Shown here: piece after piece, positions 43,829-51,002 of the stretch
Layout: the number at the start of each line of letters is the position of its first letter
Numbering within the stretch: position 1 is the first letter of the stretch
DNA from: Caminibacter pacificus
GTDB taxonomy: Bacteria > Campylobacterota > Campylobacteria > Campylobacterales > Nautiliaceae
Length of the DNA stretch: 64,000 nucleotides
Direction: 5' to 3'
Assembly (NCBI RefSeq): GCF_003752135.1
Contig: NZ_RJVK01000002.1
Span: 186,001-250,000, forward strand
Program-made: the position numbers and the translations under genes
The notes under the pieces: generated by a model
What the model was told of the DNA's origin: nothing
Seen by the model: only the letters and a program-made list of their open reading frames with translations
Databases searched by the model: none

Positions 43829-44450
43829 ATATCTTTATAAATTAAAAGAAGCGGGAGTTGAGTATTTCGAAGGTTTCGTAAGCGAAGATAAAAAAGTAGA
43901 TATGCCAAATGAACTAAAAGAACTTGAAAAAATATGTAAAAATTGCACTCTTTGCGACCTAAGTAAAACAAGAACCAACGTAGTTTTCGGAGAAGGAAAC
44001 CCTAAAGCAAAACTAATGTTTATCGGTGAAGGACCGGGGGAAATGGAAGATAAAACGGGTCGCCCTTTTGTGGGAAGAGCGGGAAAATTACTTACGAAAA
44101 TTATTGAAAATGTGTTAGAATTAACAAGAGAAGACGTCTATATCGCAAATATAGTAAAATGCAGACCGCCTAATAACCGAGTACCGAGTATAGAAGAGGC
44201 CGAAAGTTGCAAACCGTATCTTTTAAAACAGATAGAGATTATAAATCCGGAAATTTTAGTTTGTCTTGGAAAAACGGCATTTATGTATTTATTAAACGAA
44301 AATCTGCCTATTAGCAGAGTTAGAGGACAAATATTCGAATACAAAGGAAGAAAAGTGATACCGACATATCATCCAAGCTTTTTATTAAGAAATCCTTCGG
44401 CGAAAAAAGAAGCTTATAAAGACTTTTTACTTATAAAGAGTATGCTATGA
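43806..44450 (+). CDS. Family 4 uracil-DNA glycosylase (Fe-S type)
   Basis: The enzyme removes uracil from DNA. The N-terminal KICKNCTLCDLSKTRTNVVFGEG gives two of the four Fe-S cysteines, and the other two lie in VKCRPPNNRVPSIEEAESC. The uracil-binding motif is GEGPGEMEDKTGRPFVGRAG, and the second motif is PTYHPSFLLRNP. It is common in thermophiles, where cytosine deamination is fast. The ATG overlaps the channel gene by 23 bp. Confidence 0.94.
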   Translation: MKNLMKLKYLYKLKEAGVEYFEGFVSEDKKVDMPNELKELEKICKNCTLCDLSKTRTNVVFGEGNPKAKLMFIGEGPGEMEDKTGRPFVGRAGKLLTKIIENVLELTREDVYIANIVKCRPPNNRVPSIEEAESCKPYLLKQIEIINPEILVCLGKTAFMYLLNENLPISRVRGQIFEYKGRKVIPTYHPSFLLRNPSAKKEAYKDFLLIKSML

Positions 44451-45517
44451 AAAAAATAATCGCACTACTATTTACGGCAATTTTAGTATTTGCACAAACT
44501 GAAGTTATTGTCGAACCCGATAACGAACAAGTGGAAGTTTTTGACGATAATTTCGTCTCGCAAAAAGTAAGCGTAAACGTAGCGGTTGTGATAGATAAGA
44601 AAAAATTTTTCAAATTCATTCCTTCGATTATGAATTCGATAAATTCTTATTTCATATATAAAGCTTCAAACTATCACATAAAACTTTTCGATATCGACGC
44701 AAATTTATCTCAAATCACTCAAAACTACAAAGACATCGTTTATATCACTACCGATAAACAAAAAATAGAAGAATTAAAAAATTACGACGCTCATTTTTAC
44801 GTACCCACTTTCAACGCAAGCGATTTCAAAACGACAAATCAACAACCATTAGAAAACAACGAAACTACGGCAAATCCTTTCGAATATACAGAAGAAGAAA
44901 ACTCAACAAAACAACTTGATAATGTTGATTTCGGTCTTATAGATTTCAAATCCCAAGTAAATACTTTAGCCCAATATATCGATGATAATTATGCAATCGC
45001 AATAAATTCAAAAGGAACGATTCCTCAAAAACTTCTTCAATACGAAAGCGAACTTAATATAATGTTGGATACTTATGATTTCCCTAATATTCCTTATGAG
45101 AAATTAAATAATCACTATATTTTTTTCAATACCAGCGCAAGTAAAACGGCTCAAATCTTAGCCCAAATCACATACAAAAACATAGAAACCAAACTCCAAC
45201 TCGCAACTCAAATAGATTACGACCCTCTGTTAATATCAATCACTCAACCTCAAGACGTCGAAAAACTGATAATCGCAAATTCAATCTTAAATATTCCTAT
45301 CGATTTGGAAGATACCAATATGAACTTAAACAGCGATATAAGATTTAATTGGCTAAATTACGACATCAGCATACTTCTAAACAAAATTTACAACAAACAG
45401 ACAAACGACGACGAATATTATATGAACGATTTTCACGTATATATTTTCGATCATCAAATCAACTACAATACAAAACTCTACCAAATTATAAACGGCGCGT
45501 TTAAGCCTATTCAATAA
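44447..45517 (+). CDS. Exported protein of unknown function
   Basis: The 356-aa product has a signal peptide (MKKIIALLFTAILVFAQ) with a cleavage-like AQ-T and no lipobox, so it should be periplasmic. I do not recognise a domain. The mature protein is rich in Asn, Asp, Thr and Ile. It contains KVSVNVAVVIDKKKFFKF near the start and several segments of mixed alpha/beta pattern; no cysteines. It overlaps the glycosylase by 4 bp and ends the rightward run before metE. Confidence 0.7.
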   Translation: MKKIIALLFTAILVFAQTEVIVEPDNEQVEVFDDNFVSQKVSVNVAVVIDKKKFFKFIPSIMNSINSYFIYKASNYHIKLFDIDANLSQITQNYKDIVYITTDKQKIEELKNYDAHFYVPTFNASDFKTTNQQPLENNETTANPFEYTEEENSTKQLDNVDFGLIDFKSQVNTLAQYIDDNYAIAINSKGTIPQKLLQYESELNIMLDTYDFPNIPYEKLNNHYIFFNTSASKTAQILAQITYKNIETKLQLATQIDYDPLLISITQPQDVEKLIIANSILNIPIDLEDTNMNLNSDIRFNWLNYDISILLNKIYNKQTNDDEYYMNDFHVYIFDHQINYNTKLYQIINGAFKPIQ

Positions 45518-45544
45518 CCTCCTTTTTCTTTTTTTTTATTTTGG

Positions 45545-45566
45545 TATAATTCCGCTAAAAAAGGAA
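45545..45566 (+). promoter_or_regulatory. Promoter and ribosome-binding site of metE
   Basis: TATAAT at 45545-45550, ten bases, AAGGAA at 45561-45566, then ATG at 45571. The predicted leader is only about 15 bases long, so there is no space for a cobalamin or SAM riboswitch. TCCTTTTT at 45520-45527 is complementary to AAAAAGGA around the ribosome-binding site. Confidence 0.65.
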
Positions 45567-45570
45567 GCAT

Positions 45571-47829
45571 ATGGCAACTTATGTTATCGGGTTCCCGAGA
45601 ATCGGCGAACAAAGAGAGCTTAAAAAAGCACTTGAAGCGTATTGGAGCGGTAAAATCAGCCAAGATGAACTAAAACAAACTGCAAGTGACCTCAGAAAAA
45701 GACACTGGACTTATCAAAAAAATGCCGGCATCGATATGATTAGCGTTAATGATTTCAGTTTTTATGACAATATGCTTGATATGACCGTTATGTTAAATGC
45801 GGTACCTGAAAAATACAAAGATATCGACAATTGTATGGATAGATATTTCGCAATGGCAAGAGGTGATGCGAATCACAAAGCTATGGAAATGACAAAATGG
45901 TTTAACACGAACTACCACTATATCGTACCTGAACTCGATATCGATATGGATTTTAAAGCGAATATCGATAAAATCGTTTTGGAATACAATGAGGCAAAAG
46001 AACTCGGAATCGAGCCGAAAGTAAATTTAATCGGGCCGATTACATACGTAAAACTTAGCAAAATAGTAAACGGAGACGAAAAAGCAATTATCGAAAAATT
46101 GGTACCTGTTTACAAAGAAATCATCGCTAAATTAAAAGAATTAAACCCTAACGTAACTATCCAAATGGACGAACCTTATTTTGTTACGAATCCGACAAAA
46201 GAAGACCTTGAACTTCTTGAAAAAGTTTATAATGAACTTGCAAGCGATGCAAATATTTACGTTGCAACATATTTCGAACATTCAAACGAAGCAAACGAAG
46301 TACTTGCTAAAACTCCTATTAAAGGTATGTTTTTAGATTTCGTACACGGAAGTGAAAACAGCATTAAAGCGTTAGTTGACGCCGGAAAAGAAGTTGGTAT
46401 CGGAATCGTAAACGGAAGAAACGTATGGGTTAACGATATCGAAAAATCGGCTGCGTTCGTAAAAGGTCTGACTGAAGCGGTTGAGAGTGACAAAGTACAC
46501 GTAGGAAGCAGCTGTAGTTTACTTCACGTACCATACACTCTAAAATACGAAACAAAAATGGACGAAGATATTAAATCTTGGATTTCATACGCACTTGAAA
46601 AACTTGACGAAATAAGAGTTATCAACAAACTTGTAAAAAATGAAGAGCTTAGCGAATACGACAAAGAAGTACTTGAAGGCAACAAAATCGCAATAGCTAC
46701 AAGAAAAACTTCAAGCAAAATCCACGACCCGATCGTTCAAGATAGAGTAAGCAACTTAACTGAAAAAGACAAACATAGAAGTATGCCGTTTGAGGAAAGA
46801 ATCAAACTTCAACACGAAAACCTAAAATACCCTATTTTACCAACGACGACAATCGGAAGTTTCCCACAAACTCCTGAACTTAGAAAATTAAGAAGAGATT
46901 TCAAAAACGGGCTTATCAGCGAAGAAGATTACAAAGCTCAAATTAAAGAAATGATTAAAGACCTTGTAAAATTCCAAGAAGAAATCGGTCTTGACGTACT
47001 TGTACACGGTGAATTCGAGAGAAACGACATGGTTGAATATTTCGGTGAACAACTAAACGGAGTTGCGTTCTCTCAAAACGGATGGGTTCAAAGTTACGGT
47101 AGTAGATGTGTAAAACCACCTCTAATTTACGGAGATGTTTCTAGACCTAAAGATATGACGGTTGAATGGATTACATACGCTCAATCTCTAACAGAAAAAC
47201 CTATGAAAGGTATGCTAACAGGTCCTGTTACTATGCTTAACTGGTCATTCGTAAGAGACGACCAACCAAAAAGAACGACTGCATATCAAATGGCAATCGC
47301 TATTAGAGACGAAGTGGAAGCTCTTGAAGCTGCCGGAATTAAAGTAATCCAAGTTGACGAAGCGGCACTTAGAGAAGGATATCCTCTAAGAAACGAAAAA
47401 AGAGCTGAATACGAAGATTGGGCTATTACGAGCTTTAGAATTACAACAAGCAGCGTAAAACCTGAAACTCAAATTCACACTCATATGTGTTATTCTGAAT
47501 TTAGCGACATTATGGACGCTATTGAAGATATGGACGCTGACGTTATCTCTATTGAAAACGCAAGAAGTGACAACAGCCTGCTTAAAATCTTTAAAGAAAG
47601 AGGATACAAAGGCGAAATCGGACCTGGTGTATATGACATCCACAGCCCGAGAATCCCAAGCAAAGAAGAAATCGTAGAGCAAATCGAAGCAATCCTTGAA
47701 GTACTTCCGGCTGAAAAAGTTTGGATTAACCCGGATTGCGGTCTTAAAACAAGAAAATGGGAAGAAGTTAAACCAAGTCTTAAAAATATGGTTGACGCAA
47801 CTATCGAAGTTAGAAAAAAACTTCAATAA
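45571..47829 (+). CDS. metE: Cobalamin-independent methionine synthase
   Basis: MetE transfers a methyl group from 5-methyltetrahydropteroyl-triglutamate to homocysteine, using zinc. The N-terminal barrel begins GFPRIGEQRELKKALEAYW. The C-terminal barrel has TTTIGSFPQTPELRKLR, the zinc ligands in IHTHMCYSEF (His and Cys) and NPDCGLKTRKW (Cys), and SIENARSD. The length of 752 aa is typical. metK, which uses the product, is encoded 1.5 kb downstream. No vitamin B12-dependent MetH is seen in the window. Confidence 0.97.
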   Translation: MATYVIGFPRIGEQRELKKALEAYWSGKISQDELKQTASDLRKRHWTYQKNAGIDMISVNDFSFYDNMLDMTVMLNAVPEKYKDIDNCMDRYFAMARGDANHKAMEMTKWFNTNYHYIVPELDIDMDFKANIDKIVLEYNEAKELGIEPKVNLIGPITYVKLSKIVNGDEKAIIEKLVPVYKEIIAKLKELNPNVTIQMDEPYFVTNPTKEDLELLEKVYNELASDANIYVATYFEHSNEANEVLAKTPIKGMFLDFVHGSENSIKALVDAGKEVGIGIVNGRNVWVNDIEKSAAFVKGLTEAVESDKVHVGSSCSLLHVPYTLKYETKMDEDIKSWISYALEKLDEIRVINKLVKNEELSEYDKEVLEGNKIAIATRKTSSKIHDPIVQDRVSNLTEKDKHRSMPFEERIKLQHENLKYPILPTTTIGSFPQTPELRKLRRDFKNGLISEEDYKAQIKEMIKDLVKFQEEIGLDVLVHGEFERNDMVEYFGEQLNGVAFSQNGWVQSYGSRCVKPPLIYGDVSRPKDMTVEWITYAQSLTEKPMKGMLTGPVTMLNWSFVRDDQPKRTTAYQMAIAIRDEVEALEAAGIKVIQVDEAALREGYPLRNEKRAEYEDWAITSFRITTSSVKPETQIHTHMCYSEFSDIMDAIEDMDADVISIENARSDNSLLKIFKERGYKGEIGPGVYDIHSPRIPSKEEIVEQIEAILEVLPAEKVWINPDCGLKTRKWEEVKPSLKNMVDATIEVRKKLQ

Positions 47830-47836
47830 TCCCCTC

Positions 47837-47895
47837 TTTTCATCCTTCCTTTTTTGTTACAATATCTTAATCGGATTAAGGGGGAAGGATGAAAA
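47837..47895 (+). promoter_or_regulatory. Inverted repeat enclosing promoter, palindrome and ribosome-binding site
   Basis: TTTTCATCCTTCC (47837-47849) is an exact 13-bp complement of GGAAGGATGAAAA (47883-47895), which contains the ribosome-binding site and the ATG at 47889. Between the arms lie a TACAAT -10 box (47858-47863) and the palindrome CTTAATC-G-GATTAAG (47866-47880). RNA reading through from metE could fold over the start codon; RNA from the inner promoter could not, because the left arm would be missing. Confidence 0.5.
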
Positions 47896-49247
47896 AACTA
47901 CTTTTATTTTTACTAACAACCTCACTTTTCGCACTTACTACGAATAACACTTTTAGAATCACTTTTCAAAATCTCAAATTCCAAAACGAACATATGGGAT
48001 TGCTTGAAACGAGTTATCTTTTTGATTTCGGTAATTTTTATACGGGTCTTAGCGTTTATTCGGCAATAACAGGAAAAAGAGGAGGATTTTTCACAGGAGG
48101 CGTCAATTTAGGATACAAATATCCGCTTGAAAAAATCACACTTGATAGCGGACTTTTTATAGGTGGAGGCGGTGGCGGACACGCACCTCAAGGTAGCGGT
48201 CTTATGCTAAAAATCTACGCCGGAGCACTTTATCCTCTAAATAAAAATTTCAATTTAGTAGCAAATCTCAATCATATTAAATTCAAAGACGGAGAGATAG
48301 ACTCCACACAGCTCGCTTTAGGGGTTGATTATAATTTTCAAGACGTATATTTTCTAAAACCATTTAACGGCTACGGATATTTTTCAAAAGAGAGGGTCTT
48401 TTTTTCTCCTTTCGTACTTGAATATATTCCTTTTGATTCGAAAACCACCGCCCGAACAAAACAAAAACGTTTTTCTTTAATAGGCGCCGAAATTGGAAAA
48501 TATAAAAACGAAAATACGTTTTATTTTATCTCTACGGGCGGTGCGTTTAGAGGAGAGAGCGACGGATACGCGGAATTTTTATTCGGAATGGGGAAAAAAT
48601 TTCCTTTTCTAACTTTAAAAGCATCTCTTGGAGCCGGAGGCGGTGGTGAAGTCGATACCAAAGGCGGAGCTATTTATAAAATAGAAGCTCAAAAAAATAT
48701 CTCTTTTTTAAATATTTCCGCAGGATATATGGGAAGCTTCGGCGGAGTTAAAGCTTATTATTTAAAAGCCGCAATAAATAAAAACTTTAATTTCGCAAGT
48801 GTAGGAGAAAAATATTTAAAAATTGAAACGAAAAAATTCAGAATTTCTCTATATAGCGAATCGTATCTGCCATCAAATACGATAAGAAAAGACGACGATT
48901 CAAAAAGACTTGACGTTATGAACGTGGATTTGGGATATTTTATCGATGAAAATTATTACGCTTTTATAAACGCGGCAAGCGCATATAACGGAGGAAGCGG
49001 AGGATATGCCGTAGGAATGTTCGGAGTAGGATATGAAAAAAACTTTTTTGCAAAAATTGCCGTAGGAGCCGCGGGAGGTGGAAGAGTGGATGTAGGCGGA
49101 GGGCTTTTGGCAAAAGCGATTATAGGGTATAAATTTAAAAACTTTTCAATCGGTATCGGCAGAATCAAAGCGTTTGAGGGAAGACTTGATACGACTATTC
49201 TTGATATAGGAATCGATTTTGATTTTTATAAAGGAATAGTTGAGTAA
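47889..49247 (+). CDS. Envelope protein with three glycine-rich repeats
   Basis: A 452-aa protein with a signal peptide ([15 protein letters not shown]). The mature part has three related units of about 130 residues. Each has alternating beta-strand patterns with a glycine cluster followed by strands ending in -[18 protein letters not shown] (92-104), [13 protein letters not shown] (248-260) and [13 protein letters not shown] (393-405). Each unit is preceded by a YxG/GG turn such as [18 protein letters not shown]. This looks like an outer-membrane barrel or a beta-rich surface protein. No family is recognised. It lies between metE and metK with its own promoter. Confidence 0.75.
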
Positions 49248-49287
49248 TCAATATGATATACTTCTAAAAATCTTTCAAGGAGAATTA

Positions 49288-50436
49288 ATGAGAGAATATC
49301 TTTTTAGTAGCGAAAGTGTAACGGAAGGTCATCCGGATAAAATGGCGGACCAAATCAGCGACGCGATTTTAGATTATATTATCGAAAGAGACCCTAACGC
49401 AAAAGTGGCTTGCGAAACACTTCTTAGTAACGGATATTGTATTATTGCGGGAGAGCTCAAAACCACTACGTACGCTCCAATGCAAGAAATCGCAAGAGAA
49501 GTTATTAGAGAAATAGGCTATACCGATGCAAGATACGGATTTGATTATAGAACGGCCGGTGTTTTAAACGGTGTGGGAGAGCAAAGCCCGGATATCAGAC
49601 AAGGTGTGGAAAGAGGAGAAGAAATCGGAGCTGGAGACCAAGGTATGATGTTCGGATACGCATGTACCGAAACTCCGGAACTTATGCCGCTTCCAATCAT
49701 GCTTGCTCATAAACTTACAAAAAGACTTGCAGTTGCTAGAAAAGAAGCTATTATTCCGTGGCTAAGACCGGACGGAAAAGCACAAGTGAGCGTAAAATAC
49801 GTAGACGGAAAACCGGTTAGCGTTGAAAAAGTCGTAGTTTCGACTCAACACGAACCGGATATTAACTATTCGGAAATTAAAGAGGCTGTAATCGAAGAAG
49901 TTATAAAAAAAGTAATTCCTGCAAATATGCTTAGCAAAAACGTTGAATATTTCATAAACCCGACAGGAAAATTCGTAATCGGAGGTCCTCAAGGAGATGC
50001 CGGACTTACAGGTAGAAAAATTATAGTCGATACGTACGGTGGTGCGGCACCTCACGGCGGAGGAGCGTTTAGTGGAAAAGACCCTACAAAAGTTGATAGA
50101 AGCGGAGCATACGCAGCAAGATACGTAGCTAAAAACTTAGTAGCAGCAGGTGTTGCTGAAAAACTAACCGTCCAAATCGCATATGCTATCGGAGTAGTAG
50201 AGCCGGTAAGTATTTATATCGATACTCACGGCACCGCGAAAGTTGACGAAACAAAAATAGAAGAAGCAGTTAGAAAAATTTTCAACCTAACACCAAAAGG
50301 TATTATCGAAACTCTTGATTTATTAAAACCTATTTATAGAAAAACGGCGGCTTACGGGCATTTCGGTAGAGAAGAGTTCTCTTGGGAAAAACTTGACAAA
50401 GTAGAAGAAATAAAAGATTACCTAAACCTAAAATAA
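49288..50436 (+). CDS. metK: S-adenosylmethionine synthetase
   Basis: MetK makes SAM from methionine and ATP. The start is the ATG at 49288 after AAGGAG, giving 382 aa; the open frame from 49240 adds 16 non-homologous residues. [48 protein letters not shown] and [16 protein letters not shown] are the signature motifs. It supplies SAM to the many methyltransferases and radical SAM enzymes in this window. Confidence 0.98.
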
Positions 50437-50473
50437 CCTCCTCTCCCCTCTTTTACGTTTTTATAAAACTCGA

Positions 50474-50621
50474 TACATTACAACTTCACCTTTTTTACAA
50501 AATCCCTATTTTCACAAACTCACAAACTTACTATTTCACCCTATTCCTCATCTATTCCTCATCTTTCCCCTATTTTTTTTCTATCCTACAATTTCACAAA
50601 CTCACTGATTCACAATTTCAC
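50474..50621. repeat. Period-8 repeat region, inverted copy (blocks C, D and E)
   Basis: The same octamers as at 31050, on the other strand. Block C (50474-50489): TACATTAC, AACTTCAC. Block D (50508-50539): ATTTTCAC, AAACTCAC, AAACTTAC, TATTTCAC. Block E (50582-50621): TATCCTAC, AATTTCAC, AAACTCAC, TGATTCAC, AATTTCAC. Between D and E is a CT-rich segment with CCTCATCTATTCCTCATC, the complement of the GA-rich segment near 31280. It lies between metK and the DUF59 gene; I see no gene in this 257-bp gap. Confidence 0.7.
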
Positions 50622-50653
50622 CTATTTTACATCCCTATCTCTTCTCCACCCAA

Positions 50654-50687
50654 CTCCTTTTTGCGCTATAATTCGCAAAAAAAGGAG
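50654..50687 (+). promoter_or_regulatory. Promoter inside a hairpin that pairs with the ribosome-binding site
   Basis: CTCCTTTTTGCG (50654-50665) is complementary, with a two-base bulge, to CGCAAAAAAAGGAG (50674-50687), which ends in the ribosome-binding site. The loop CTATAATT contains the TATAAT -10 box (50667-50672). The own transcript would begin near 50679 and leave AAGGAG free. Confidence 0.5.
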
Positions 50688-50693
50688 AAGATT

Positions 50694-51002
50694 ATGGATT
50701 TTTTCGAAATTGTAAAAACAATCGAAAGCATACAACACCCGGCAATTGCCACAAGTTTAACTAATTTAGGTATTTTGCAAGATGTGGATATCGAAGGAGA
50801 TACGGTAAAAGCTACATTCGTATGGCCTTTTGCGAATATTCCGATAAAAGAGCAAATTATCAACTCGGTAAAAGCACCACTGAACGCAAAAGGCTTAAAA
50901 TTAGAATATAACGAAAGAATTATGAATGAAGACGAGAAGCAAAGATTTTTAGAATTAGAAAAGAAATATTGGAGAGGTGGACCTGCCGCTTGCGGAATGT
51001 AA
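50694..51002 (+). CDS. DUF59/MIP18-family iron-sulfur cluster assembly protein
   Basis: The 102-aa protein has the DUF59 fold: a start of the DxxEIVKTIESIQHPAI type, DVDIEGDTVKATFVWPFANIPIKEQI, and a C-terminal extension ending GGPAACGM with one cysteine. Relatives (SufT, Mrp-fused domains) act in Fe-S cluster assembly or delivery. I use the ATG at 50694 with AAGGAG upstream; the frame from 50661 overlaps the promoter. It lies 111 bp before a ferredoxin, which fits an Fe-S role. Confidence 0.8.
   Translation: MDFFEIVKTIESIQHPAIATSLTNLGILQDVDIEGDTVKATFVWPFANIPIKEQIINSVKAPLNAKGLKLEYNERIMNEDEKQRFLELEKKYWRGGPAACGM

What the first reader, a model, noticed from the sequence alone, without database searches (positions are those of the whole stretch)
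47837..47895. Promoter lies between a ribosome-binding site and its exact 13-bp complement
The sequence complementary to the ribosome-binding site and start codon of the triple-repeat protein lies just upstream of that gene's own -10 box. RNA continuing from metE would hide the ribosome-binding site and start codon in a 13-bp stem, while RNA from the inner promoter would be free. This could insulate the gene from read-through and make its translation depend on its own promoter.
Basis: partly seen in the sequence, partly recalled or inferred. Interest (0 to 1): 0.5.

Follow-up and report, generated by a model that had tools for sequence, protein, structure and literature searches.

The report
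Promoter inside a start-blocking hairpin
In this bacterium the start of one gene can fold onto a matching stretch lying just before that gene's own promoter, so RNA running on from the gene before would be hard to translate; the match is real and strong, but it is missing from the two closest relatives that could be checked and may still be a lucky by-product of the promoter's sequence.

Summary
47837-47849 and 47883-47895 are an exact 13-bp inverted repeat covering GGAAGG-ATG-AAAA, with a -10 box (TGTTACAAT, hexamer 47858-47863) between the arms; in RNA it extends to an 18-bp stem. Opening the start site of read-through RNA is predicted to cost 10-11 kcal/mol more than for RNA from the inner promoter, at 55 and 37 C. 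This is the T4 lysozyme (gene e) layout. The pairing is in 1 of the 3 genomes with this gene after metE: one relative keeps a T/C-rich tract and a -10 but no match, the other has no room for it. A match this strong is expected about 0.08 times among the 241 comparable genes sampled, or 0.29 times by exact length among 1253 starts, so chance is not excluded. In this genome, tandem genes with their own gap show more such pairings than swapped controls (8 vs 1.6 without this gene), but a held-out third alone did not, nor did other species. Two other genes in the family support the layout better: ybgF, and a hydroxyacid dehydrogenase whose arms covary. Best reading: a lineage-specific T4-type occlusion stem, selected or accidental.

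The parts
45571..47829 (+). metE, cobalamin-independent methionine synthase, source of the presumed read-through RNA; a strong -10 (TGGTATAAT, hexamer at 45545) precedes it
   Evidence: Pfam PF01717 and PF08267; -10 score
47837..47849 (+). left arm TTTTCATCCTTCC, exact complement of the start site; 7 nt lie between it and the metE stop codon
47850..47854 (+). left half of the stem extension (UUUUU pairing GGG by G-U and AA by A-U)
   Evidence: fold
47858..47863 (+). -10 hexamer TACAAT, preceded by TGT (fits gnTAnaAT)
   Evidence: motif from a passage of PMC3847290
47868..47872 (+). predicted transcription start (not mapped)
   Evidence: inference from the -10 and the 4-8 nt spacing
47878..47884 (+). 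Shine-Dalgarno core AAGGGGG; 47878-47882 is the right half of the stem extension
47883..47895 (+). right arm GGAAGGATGAAAA, holding the start codon (47889)
47889..49247 (+). 452-aa protein with signal-like N-terminus and three Gly-rich segments (by eye); no Pfam, NCBIfam or PDB-sequence match
49288..50436 (+). metK, S-adenosylmethionine synthetase, next gene downstream
   Evidence: start and stop (one search lists the frame from an upstream TTG)

Best explanation
A T4-lysozyme-type conditional occlusion stem, present in this lineage only. RNA that runs on from metE would carry both arms, fold an 18-bp stem over the Shine-Dalgarno, start codon and first lysine codon, and be poorly translated. 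RNA starting at about 47868-47872 from the TGTTACAAT promoter lacks the left arm and folds much more weakly. Shown by the sequence: both arms, the -10 between them, absence of a terminator-like site. Predicted: stem and opening costs. Inferred: read-through, the start site, the effect on translation, and that the arrangement is selected rather than an accident of a T/C-rich promoter facing a purine-rich start site. The confidence is for 'the stem forms and lowers translation of read-through RNA'; I give about 0.3 to it being selected for.
For: Exact 13-bp repeat; fold of read-through RNA; cost to open SD-to-AUG 20.9 vs 9.8 kcal/mol at 37 C and 14.5 vs 4.4 at 55 C, read-through vs own RNA; best duplex energy of 241 sampled tandem genes, 0.08 expected; difference long minus short RNA ranks 4 of 1107 starts. 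Class evidence in the same genome: tandem genes with gap 30-260 have duplex energy <= -18 in 9 of 241 (8 without this gene) vs 1.58 expected from swapped pairs, and <= -15 in 17 vs 6.7, while tight tandem genes (1 of 419 vs 0.60) and divergent genes (1 of 178 vs 1.91) show no excess at <= -18 in the first 864 kb. A D-2-hydroxyacid dehydrogenase gene with the same layout keeps the pairing through differing arms: 12 orthologs without G000, own -14.0 vs swapped -10.8 kcal/mol, permutation P 0.0004; 0.0006 without G000 and G002. Precedent: T4 e, soc, 49, I-TevI (passages of PMC3014915 and PMC2988022).
Against: Pairing absent in both relatives with the gene after metE; core of the focal arms found in 1 of 21 family genomes. 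The held-out 400 kb of the same genome alone showed no clear excess (<= -15: 4 of 76 vs 2.20; <= -18: 1 vs 0.66), nor did the promoter-anchored version (<= -16: 2 of 78 vs 4.1, also 2 vs 2.9 with a -10 threshold). No significant excess in G001, G016, G017 or G018 taken singly (G018 came nearest, 2 of 38 vs 0.54 at <= -15, P 0.1). Divergent genes have a similar tail of start-blocking differences (12 of 266 vs 13 of 241 at >= 7 kcal/mol), which I put down to the neighbour's own ribosome site. Four of five other ortholog sets chosen from G000 showed no significant covariation without G000 (P 0.08, 0.15, 0.54, 0.81), and one control set, metE starts, came out at 0.03. No RNA data.
Confidence: 0.5

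Rival explanations
1. By-product of composition: the left arm is simply the T/C-rich tract upstream of the -10 box, and the right arm a purine-rich Shine-Dalgarno plus ATGAAAAAA. Such pairs match now and then by chance, with no selected role and perhaps no effect because read-through is low.
For: G002 keeps a T/C-rich tract (CCCCTCTTTTCTTCTCTC) and a -10 but no match. The focal left region reaches <= -20 with 18 of 1252 other genes' start sites (2 of them at or below the focal value) and the focal start site with 7 of 1252 other left regions (2 at or below). Exact runs this long are expected 0.29 times in the starts sampled. Held-out and other-species tests show no clear excess.
Against: Own pairs exceed swapped pairs in the tandem genes of this genome taken together and one ortholog family covaries; the swapped control already carries the base composition.
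Confidence: 0.42
2. Translational coupling rather than insulation: ribosomes ending metE translation at 47829 cover the first part of the left arm, open the stem, and allow the downstream gene to start on read-through RNA when metE is translated.
For: Only 7 nt separate the stop codon from the left arm; removing the arm's first 5 nt lowers the opening cost from 20.9 to 14.1 kcal/mol at 37 C and 14.5 to 8.6 at 55 C. In G001 the gene starts 18 nt after the metE stop, so it is presumably co-expressed with metE.
Against: Even then the start site stays more closed than in RNA from the inner promoter (14.1 vs 9.8 and 8.6 vs 4.4). The gene has its own promoter-like sequence, unneeded for pure coupling.
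Confidence: 0.05
3. A DNA operator: two inverted half-sites around the promoter bound by a regulator.
For: Two 13-bp inverted sites flank a promoter-like sequence.
Against: Of 21 family genomes only this one has the core pattern, and there only at this place; the right half coincides with ordinary start-site letters.
Confidence: 0.03

Closest known systems
Bacteriophage T4 gene e (lysozyme) leader, and the same design in soc, 49, I-TevI, I-TevII, I-TevIII, segB and Aeh1 mobE
   Same: Longer transcripts sequester SD and/or AUG in a helix; for gene e and I-TevI a promoter next to the ribosome site makes shorter RNA lacking the 5' part of the helix, which is translated (passages of PMC3014915 and PMC2988022).
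   Different: There structure and 5' ends were determined for T4 e, some related phages have similar leaders, and the timing makes sense (early vs late). Here it is a bacterial chromosome gene with a vegetative-type promoter, predictions only, no conservation at this locus.
IS10 / IS50 protection from read-through transcription by fold-back at the element's end (recalled; not confirmed by any search: searches and passages in 58, 67, 68 did not show it)
   Same: Read-through RNA from outside carries an extra complementary arm that hides the ribosome site.
   Different: The gene here is no transposase by family search (no family match) and the arms are not known element ends.
pyrC start-site switching of enteric bacteria (recalled; one search did not show it)
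   Same: Which of two RNA 5' ends is made decides whether a hairpin can cover the ribosome site of a chromosomal gene.
   Different: There the two starts are a few bases apart in one promoter and answer to nucleotide pools; here the longer RNA would come from the gene upstream.
ybgF (cpoB)-type gene start hairpin of this family, found here
   Same: Stem over SD and start codon; a -10-like TACAAT overlaps the left arm, so the gene's own RNA should lack part of it.
   Different: Arms identical in 16 of 17 family genomes examined, with a 4-nt predicted loop in G000; the focal stem is known from one genome and has the promoter inside its long loop.

Membership tests
T4 gene e-type conditional ribosome-site occlusion | SD and/or start codon lie in a stable helix in the longer transcript | tested here: met
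   Prediction only: 18-bp stem, mean unpaired probability of SD to AUG 0.02 at 37 C and 0.06 at 55 C
T4 gene e-type conditional ribosome-site occlusion | A promoter lies so that its transcript lacks the 5' arm | tested here: inconclusive
   A good -10 lies between the arms at 47858-47863; start site not mapped, and the generic sigma-70 scan found no promoter
T4 gene e-type conditional ribosome-site occlusion | Read-through transcripts from upstream really exist | not testable with these tools
   No terminator-like site found in 47500-48300; no RNA data
T4 gene e-type conditional ribosome-site occlusion | The arm reduces translation of the longer transcript | not testable with these tools
   Needs a reporter
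T4 gene e-type conditional ribosome-site occlusion | Similar leader structure in close relatives (reported for some T4-type phages; not strictly defining) | tested here: not met
   1 of 3 genomes with the gene after metE; 1 of 21 genomes with the core of the arms
IS10/IS50 fold-back protection (recalled) | Transposase gene with the arm at the end of a mobile element | tested here: not met
   No Pfam or NCBIfam match for the gene
Known Rfam leader or riboswitch | Match at gathering score | tested here: not met
   In 44000-51000 only a miRNA-family match at E 0.97, 22.1 bits vs gathering 77

The most novel reading that the evidence does not exclude
In this bacterium, and partly in its family, promoters of genes inside tandem runs have come to carry, in the stretch just upstream of or overlapping the -10, the complement of the downstream ribosome site. 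The promoter DNA doubles as an antisense arm, so RNA from upstream genes is transcribed but not translated at that gene: operon insulation without terminators, spread over perhaps ten genes, including the focal gene, a hydroxyacid dehydrogenase with covarying arms, and the family-wide ybgF hairpin.
Probability: 0.18. Interest if true: 0.72.

Novelty: new member of a known kind. Interest (0 to 1): 0.36.

Why it matters
Compact genomes have many tandem genes with short gaps. If promoters there double as antisense arms, transcript maps would misjudge which genes are translated from which RNA, and it would be a terminator-free way to insulate neighbours. For the focal gene alone it would be one chromosomal instance of a design known from phage T4.

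Tried and rejected
Genome-wide excess as a firm result: the first 864 kb gave 8 of 165 tandem genes at <= -18 vs about 0.9-1.1 expected (focal gene included), but the held-out 400 kb gave 1 of 76 vs 0.66, and a promoter-anchored version without the focal gene gave 14 of 171 vs 5.3 at <= -16 in the first part and 2 of 78 vs 4.1 in the held-out part. So I report it as suggestive only. The gap range 30-260 was widened from 30-130, so the class was not fixed beforehand. Gene starts come from a simple ORF caller of mine (80 aa or more) and some are surely wrong (rRNA stretches appear lists).

Distant homologs: 8 of 199 order genomes, own included, have a relative of the 452-aa protein. I looked at the upstream stretches of the five outside the family (33-51% identity); none was used in a count. 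The search for related loci found no relative in genome contigs; tblastn none in plasmids.

Rfam gave nothing above gathering score. IS10/IS50 read-through protection and pyrC switching could not be confirmed in the library (searches; passages 58, 67, 68). Two searches for chromosomal cases listed none that I recognised; only titles and abstract starts were seen, and most subscription journals are missing from the library. The 'gap' printed picks the longest upstream frame, not the nearest gene, and is not used; whether the L050 orthologs are all tandem was not checked.

Rows dropped. ybgF set: 17 of the 20 matches (G020, a contig-edge fragment in G010, a second short G019 match left out). L061: 19 of the 20 high-identity matches (G020, at contig edge). 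w50694: 11 of 12 (second G015 match). L135: 10 of 12 (partial G005, short G016). P234: 8 of 10 (two G006 fragments). L050: the 13 matches of 68% identity or more; paralogs near 30-36% left out. metE set: 18 of 19 (partial G005 out), 17 in the control (G008 out); metK 17, pal 17, fkbp 13 rows found by crude patterns. Some start codons were moved by 3-18 nt by eye. In the focal set the G002 and G001 starts were off by 3 nt each; with the right starts one search gives -25.1 (G000), -2.9 (G002), -8.1 (G001). In the ybgF set the own-vs-swapped P was 0.05, uninformative because the arms are the same in 16 of 17.

Full report
WHAT IS THERE. The exact inverted repeat is real: 47837-47849 (TTTTCATCCTTCC) and 47883-47895 (GGAAGGATGAAAA), 33 nt apart. 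It sits in the 59-nt gap between metE (45571-47829) and a 452-aa ORF (47889-49247); metK follows at 49288. In RNA the stem grows by three G-U and two A-U pairs to 18 bp and takes in the Shine-Dalgarno core AAGGGGG (47878-47884); the 84-nt stretch folds at -22.3 kcal/mol against -14.2 +/- 2.5 for shuffles, none of 200 as good. Between the arms is TGTTACAAT, hexamer 47858-47863; sites that good occur 0.27 per kb on the + strand of the window by a scoring of my own. In C. jejuni 948 of 992 start sites have gnTAnaAT 4-8 nt upstream, with no -35 (passage of PMC3847290), so the start is predicted at about 47868-47872 and the left arm falls in the upstream part of the promoter, outside the gene's own RNA. 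No terminator-like site was found in 47500-48300.

WHERE IT COMES FROM. The window is in G000 (1.86 Mb, 8 contigs). I therefore also folded at 55 C.

PREDICTED EFFECT. Cost of opening SD to AUG: read-through RNA 20.9 kcal/mol, own RNA 9.8 (37 C); 14.5 vs 4.4 (55 C); 11.2 vs 2.4 (65 C). The difference is 9-11 kcal/mol, but the own RNA is not fully open. If a ribosome ending metE hides the first 5 nt of the left arm, the cost falls to 14.1 (37 C) and 8.6 (55 C), still above the own RNA.

CHANCE. Among 459 starts in 464 kb, and 850 starts in 864 kb, no other start has an exact upstream complement as long as 13 (not run on the held-out part). But pairing one gene's upstream with another's start gives 13 or more in 17 of 73,847 pairs, 0.29 expected for the 1253 starts sampled; by duplex energy the expectation is 0.08 in 241 tandem genes. 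The focal start site reaches <= -20 with 7 of 1252 foreign left regions and the focal left region with 18 of 1252 foreign start sites, 2 in each case at or below the focal value: both are 'sticky' types, T/C-rich and purine-rich. By the difference in opening cost the gene ranks 4 of 1107 starts, and divergent genes have a similar tail (12 of 266 vs 13 of 241 at >= 7 kcal/mol; tight tandem 1 of 600), where I take the neighbour's own ribosome site to supply the complement.

CONSERVATION AT THE LOCUS. 4 of 21 family genomes have the protein. In G002 (61%) and G001 (56%) it also follows metE; in G009 (43%) the two are on different contigs. G002: metE stop, then CCCCTCTTTTCTTCTCTCTTTTTT, a -10-like TATAAT, and a start site AAGGTATCAATATG that does not pair (own duplex -2.9). 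G001: 18 nt between the metE stop and a TTG start, no room for arm or promoter. G003 has metE then metK without the gene. The core of the two arms occurs in 1 of 21 family genomes. So what is shared with G002 is the promoter-like T/C tract, not the complementarity.

IS IT A CLASS? I compared the duplex energy of each gene's own pair (-75..-22 with -14..+10) with swapped pairs. First 864 kb of G000: tandem genes with gap 30-260 (165) at <= -18: 8 observed, 0.9-1.1 expected; tight tandem (419) 1 vs 0.60; divergent (178) 1 vs 1.91. Held-out 400 kb: tandem (76) <= -15 4 vs 2.20, <= -18 1 vs 0.66: no clear replication. All 241 together: <= -18 9 vs 1.58 (8 without the focal gene, Poisson about 2e-4 by my arithmetic), <= -15 17 vs 6.7. 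G001, G016, G017, G018 singly: no significant excess (<= -15: 0, 1, 1, 2 observed vs 0.35, 0.49, 1.19, 0.54). A promoter-anchored test without the focal gene gave 14 of 171 vs 5.3 at <= -16 in the first part and 2 of 78 vs 4.1 in the held-out part; the four other species together 9 of 234 vs 4.1 (P 0.026), falling to 6 of 230 vs 4.2 with a -10 threshold. I read this as suggestive.

ORTHOLOG TEST. Five other G000 genes with the layout were followed into relatives, comparing own with swapped pairs within each set, with G000 removed because it was the reason for choosing the gene: D-2-hydroxyacid dehydrogenase family gene (L050; 12 orthologs) -14.0 vs -10.8, P 0.0004; KaiC-domain gene (L135; 9) P 0.08; L061 (18) P 0.15; w50694 (10) P 0.81; P234 (7) P 0.54. 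Controls: metK 0.78, pal 0.74, fkbp 0.47, metE 0.03 (the last unexpectedly low). Without G000 and G002 the dehydrogenase keeps P 0.0006 (11 genomes), and six spread genomes give 0.007. Relatedness makes these P values too small. In G000, G002, G014, G012 and G001 the helix pairs the SD with a T/C-rich run next to or upstream of TATAAT; in G017 and G019 a different hairpin that overlaps the -10 does it; G003, G015, G016 and G018 show little.

A FAMILY-WIDE CASE. The gene after pal (ybgF/cpoB type; TIGR02795 51.2 bits, below that model's cut-off of 90.1) starts ..TACAATTCCTTAAAAAAGGAATTGTATG..: a 12-bp stem with loop AAAA in G000 that takes in the A and U of the start codon, -14.1 kcal/mol for 51 nt, z -4.9, with the probable -10 TACAAT inside the left arm. 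The arms are identical in 16 of 17 genomes examined while the spacer varies from 6 to 10 nt. The pattern occurs once in each of 13 of 16 family genomes and in 0 of 183 other genomes of the order drawn. Variable spacing and single occurrence fit an RNA hairpin better than a regulator's operator, but the arms do not vary among those 16, so there is no covariation evidence.

WHAT IT WORKS LIKE. T4 gene e: longer early transcripts fold the start site away, reducing lysozyme synthesis 100-fold, while transcripts from late promoters next to the ribosome site lack the 5' strand (passage of PMC3014915); the same for I-TevI and others (passage of PMC2988022). The focal locus works like that on paper. 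Filing it as a proven member would need mapped RNAs and a reporter; the resemblance among some T4-type phages has no counterpart here.

VERDICT. Observation confirmed. Mechanism plausible by structure, unsupported by conservation, with chance complementarity of a T/C-rich promoter and a purine-rich start as the main rival. The more interesting lead is that the design may recur in this genome and family (ybgF, the dehydrogenase).

Noticed in passing
L030:16917-16943 (minus strand; G000:C2:136917-136943): Hairpin ACAATTCC-N6..10-GGAATTGT-ATG over the start of the ybgF/cpoB-type gene after pal, left arm overlapping a -10-like TACAAT; identical arms in 16 of 17 family genomes examined, absent from 183 other genomes of the order drawn.
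   Followed up: partly
L050:5663-5720 and L228-L240 (upstream of the start at 1501, after orienting): D-2-hydroxyacid dehydrogenase family gene whose C/T-rich run upstream of TATAAT pairs with the SD; in the orthologs own pairs beat swapped pairs (P 0.0004 without G000).
   Followed up: partly
window 50654-50687, before the gene at 50694: CTCCTTTTTGCG / CGCAAAAAAAGGAG with TATAAT (50667-50672) between: same layout two genes downstream; none of 10 orthologs pairs at <= -15.
   Followed up: partly
L135:8940-8995: KaiC-domain gene with TAGCCCCTTTTTAG / CTAAAAAGGGGCTTA around TTAAAAT (13-bp predicted stem); orthologs show weak covariation (P 0.08 without G000).
   Followed up: partly
downstream of metE in L010, L013-L016, L019-L022: In these 9 of the 18 metE loci printed an open frame of 78-86 aa with a MQNSSLPNKYxYC-like stretch begins at or overlaps the metE stop; the T-rich tract after metE in G000, G002 and G003 may be a relic of its start (guess).
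   Followed up: no
window 47889-49247: 452-aa protein with three Gly-rich segments has no Pfam, NCBIfam or PDB-sequence match; relatives are patchy (4 of 21 family genomes, 8 of 199 of the order, own included).
   Followed up: partly
window 47823-47856, minus strand: The left arm read on the other strand is itself a good start signal (AAAAAAGGAAGG-ATG-AAAAG) but its frame stops after 6 codons: a mirrored, empty start site.
   Followed up: no
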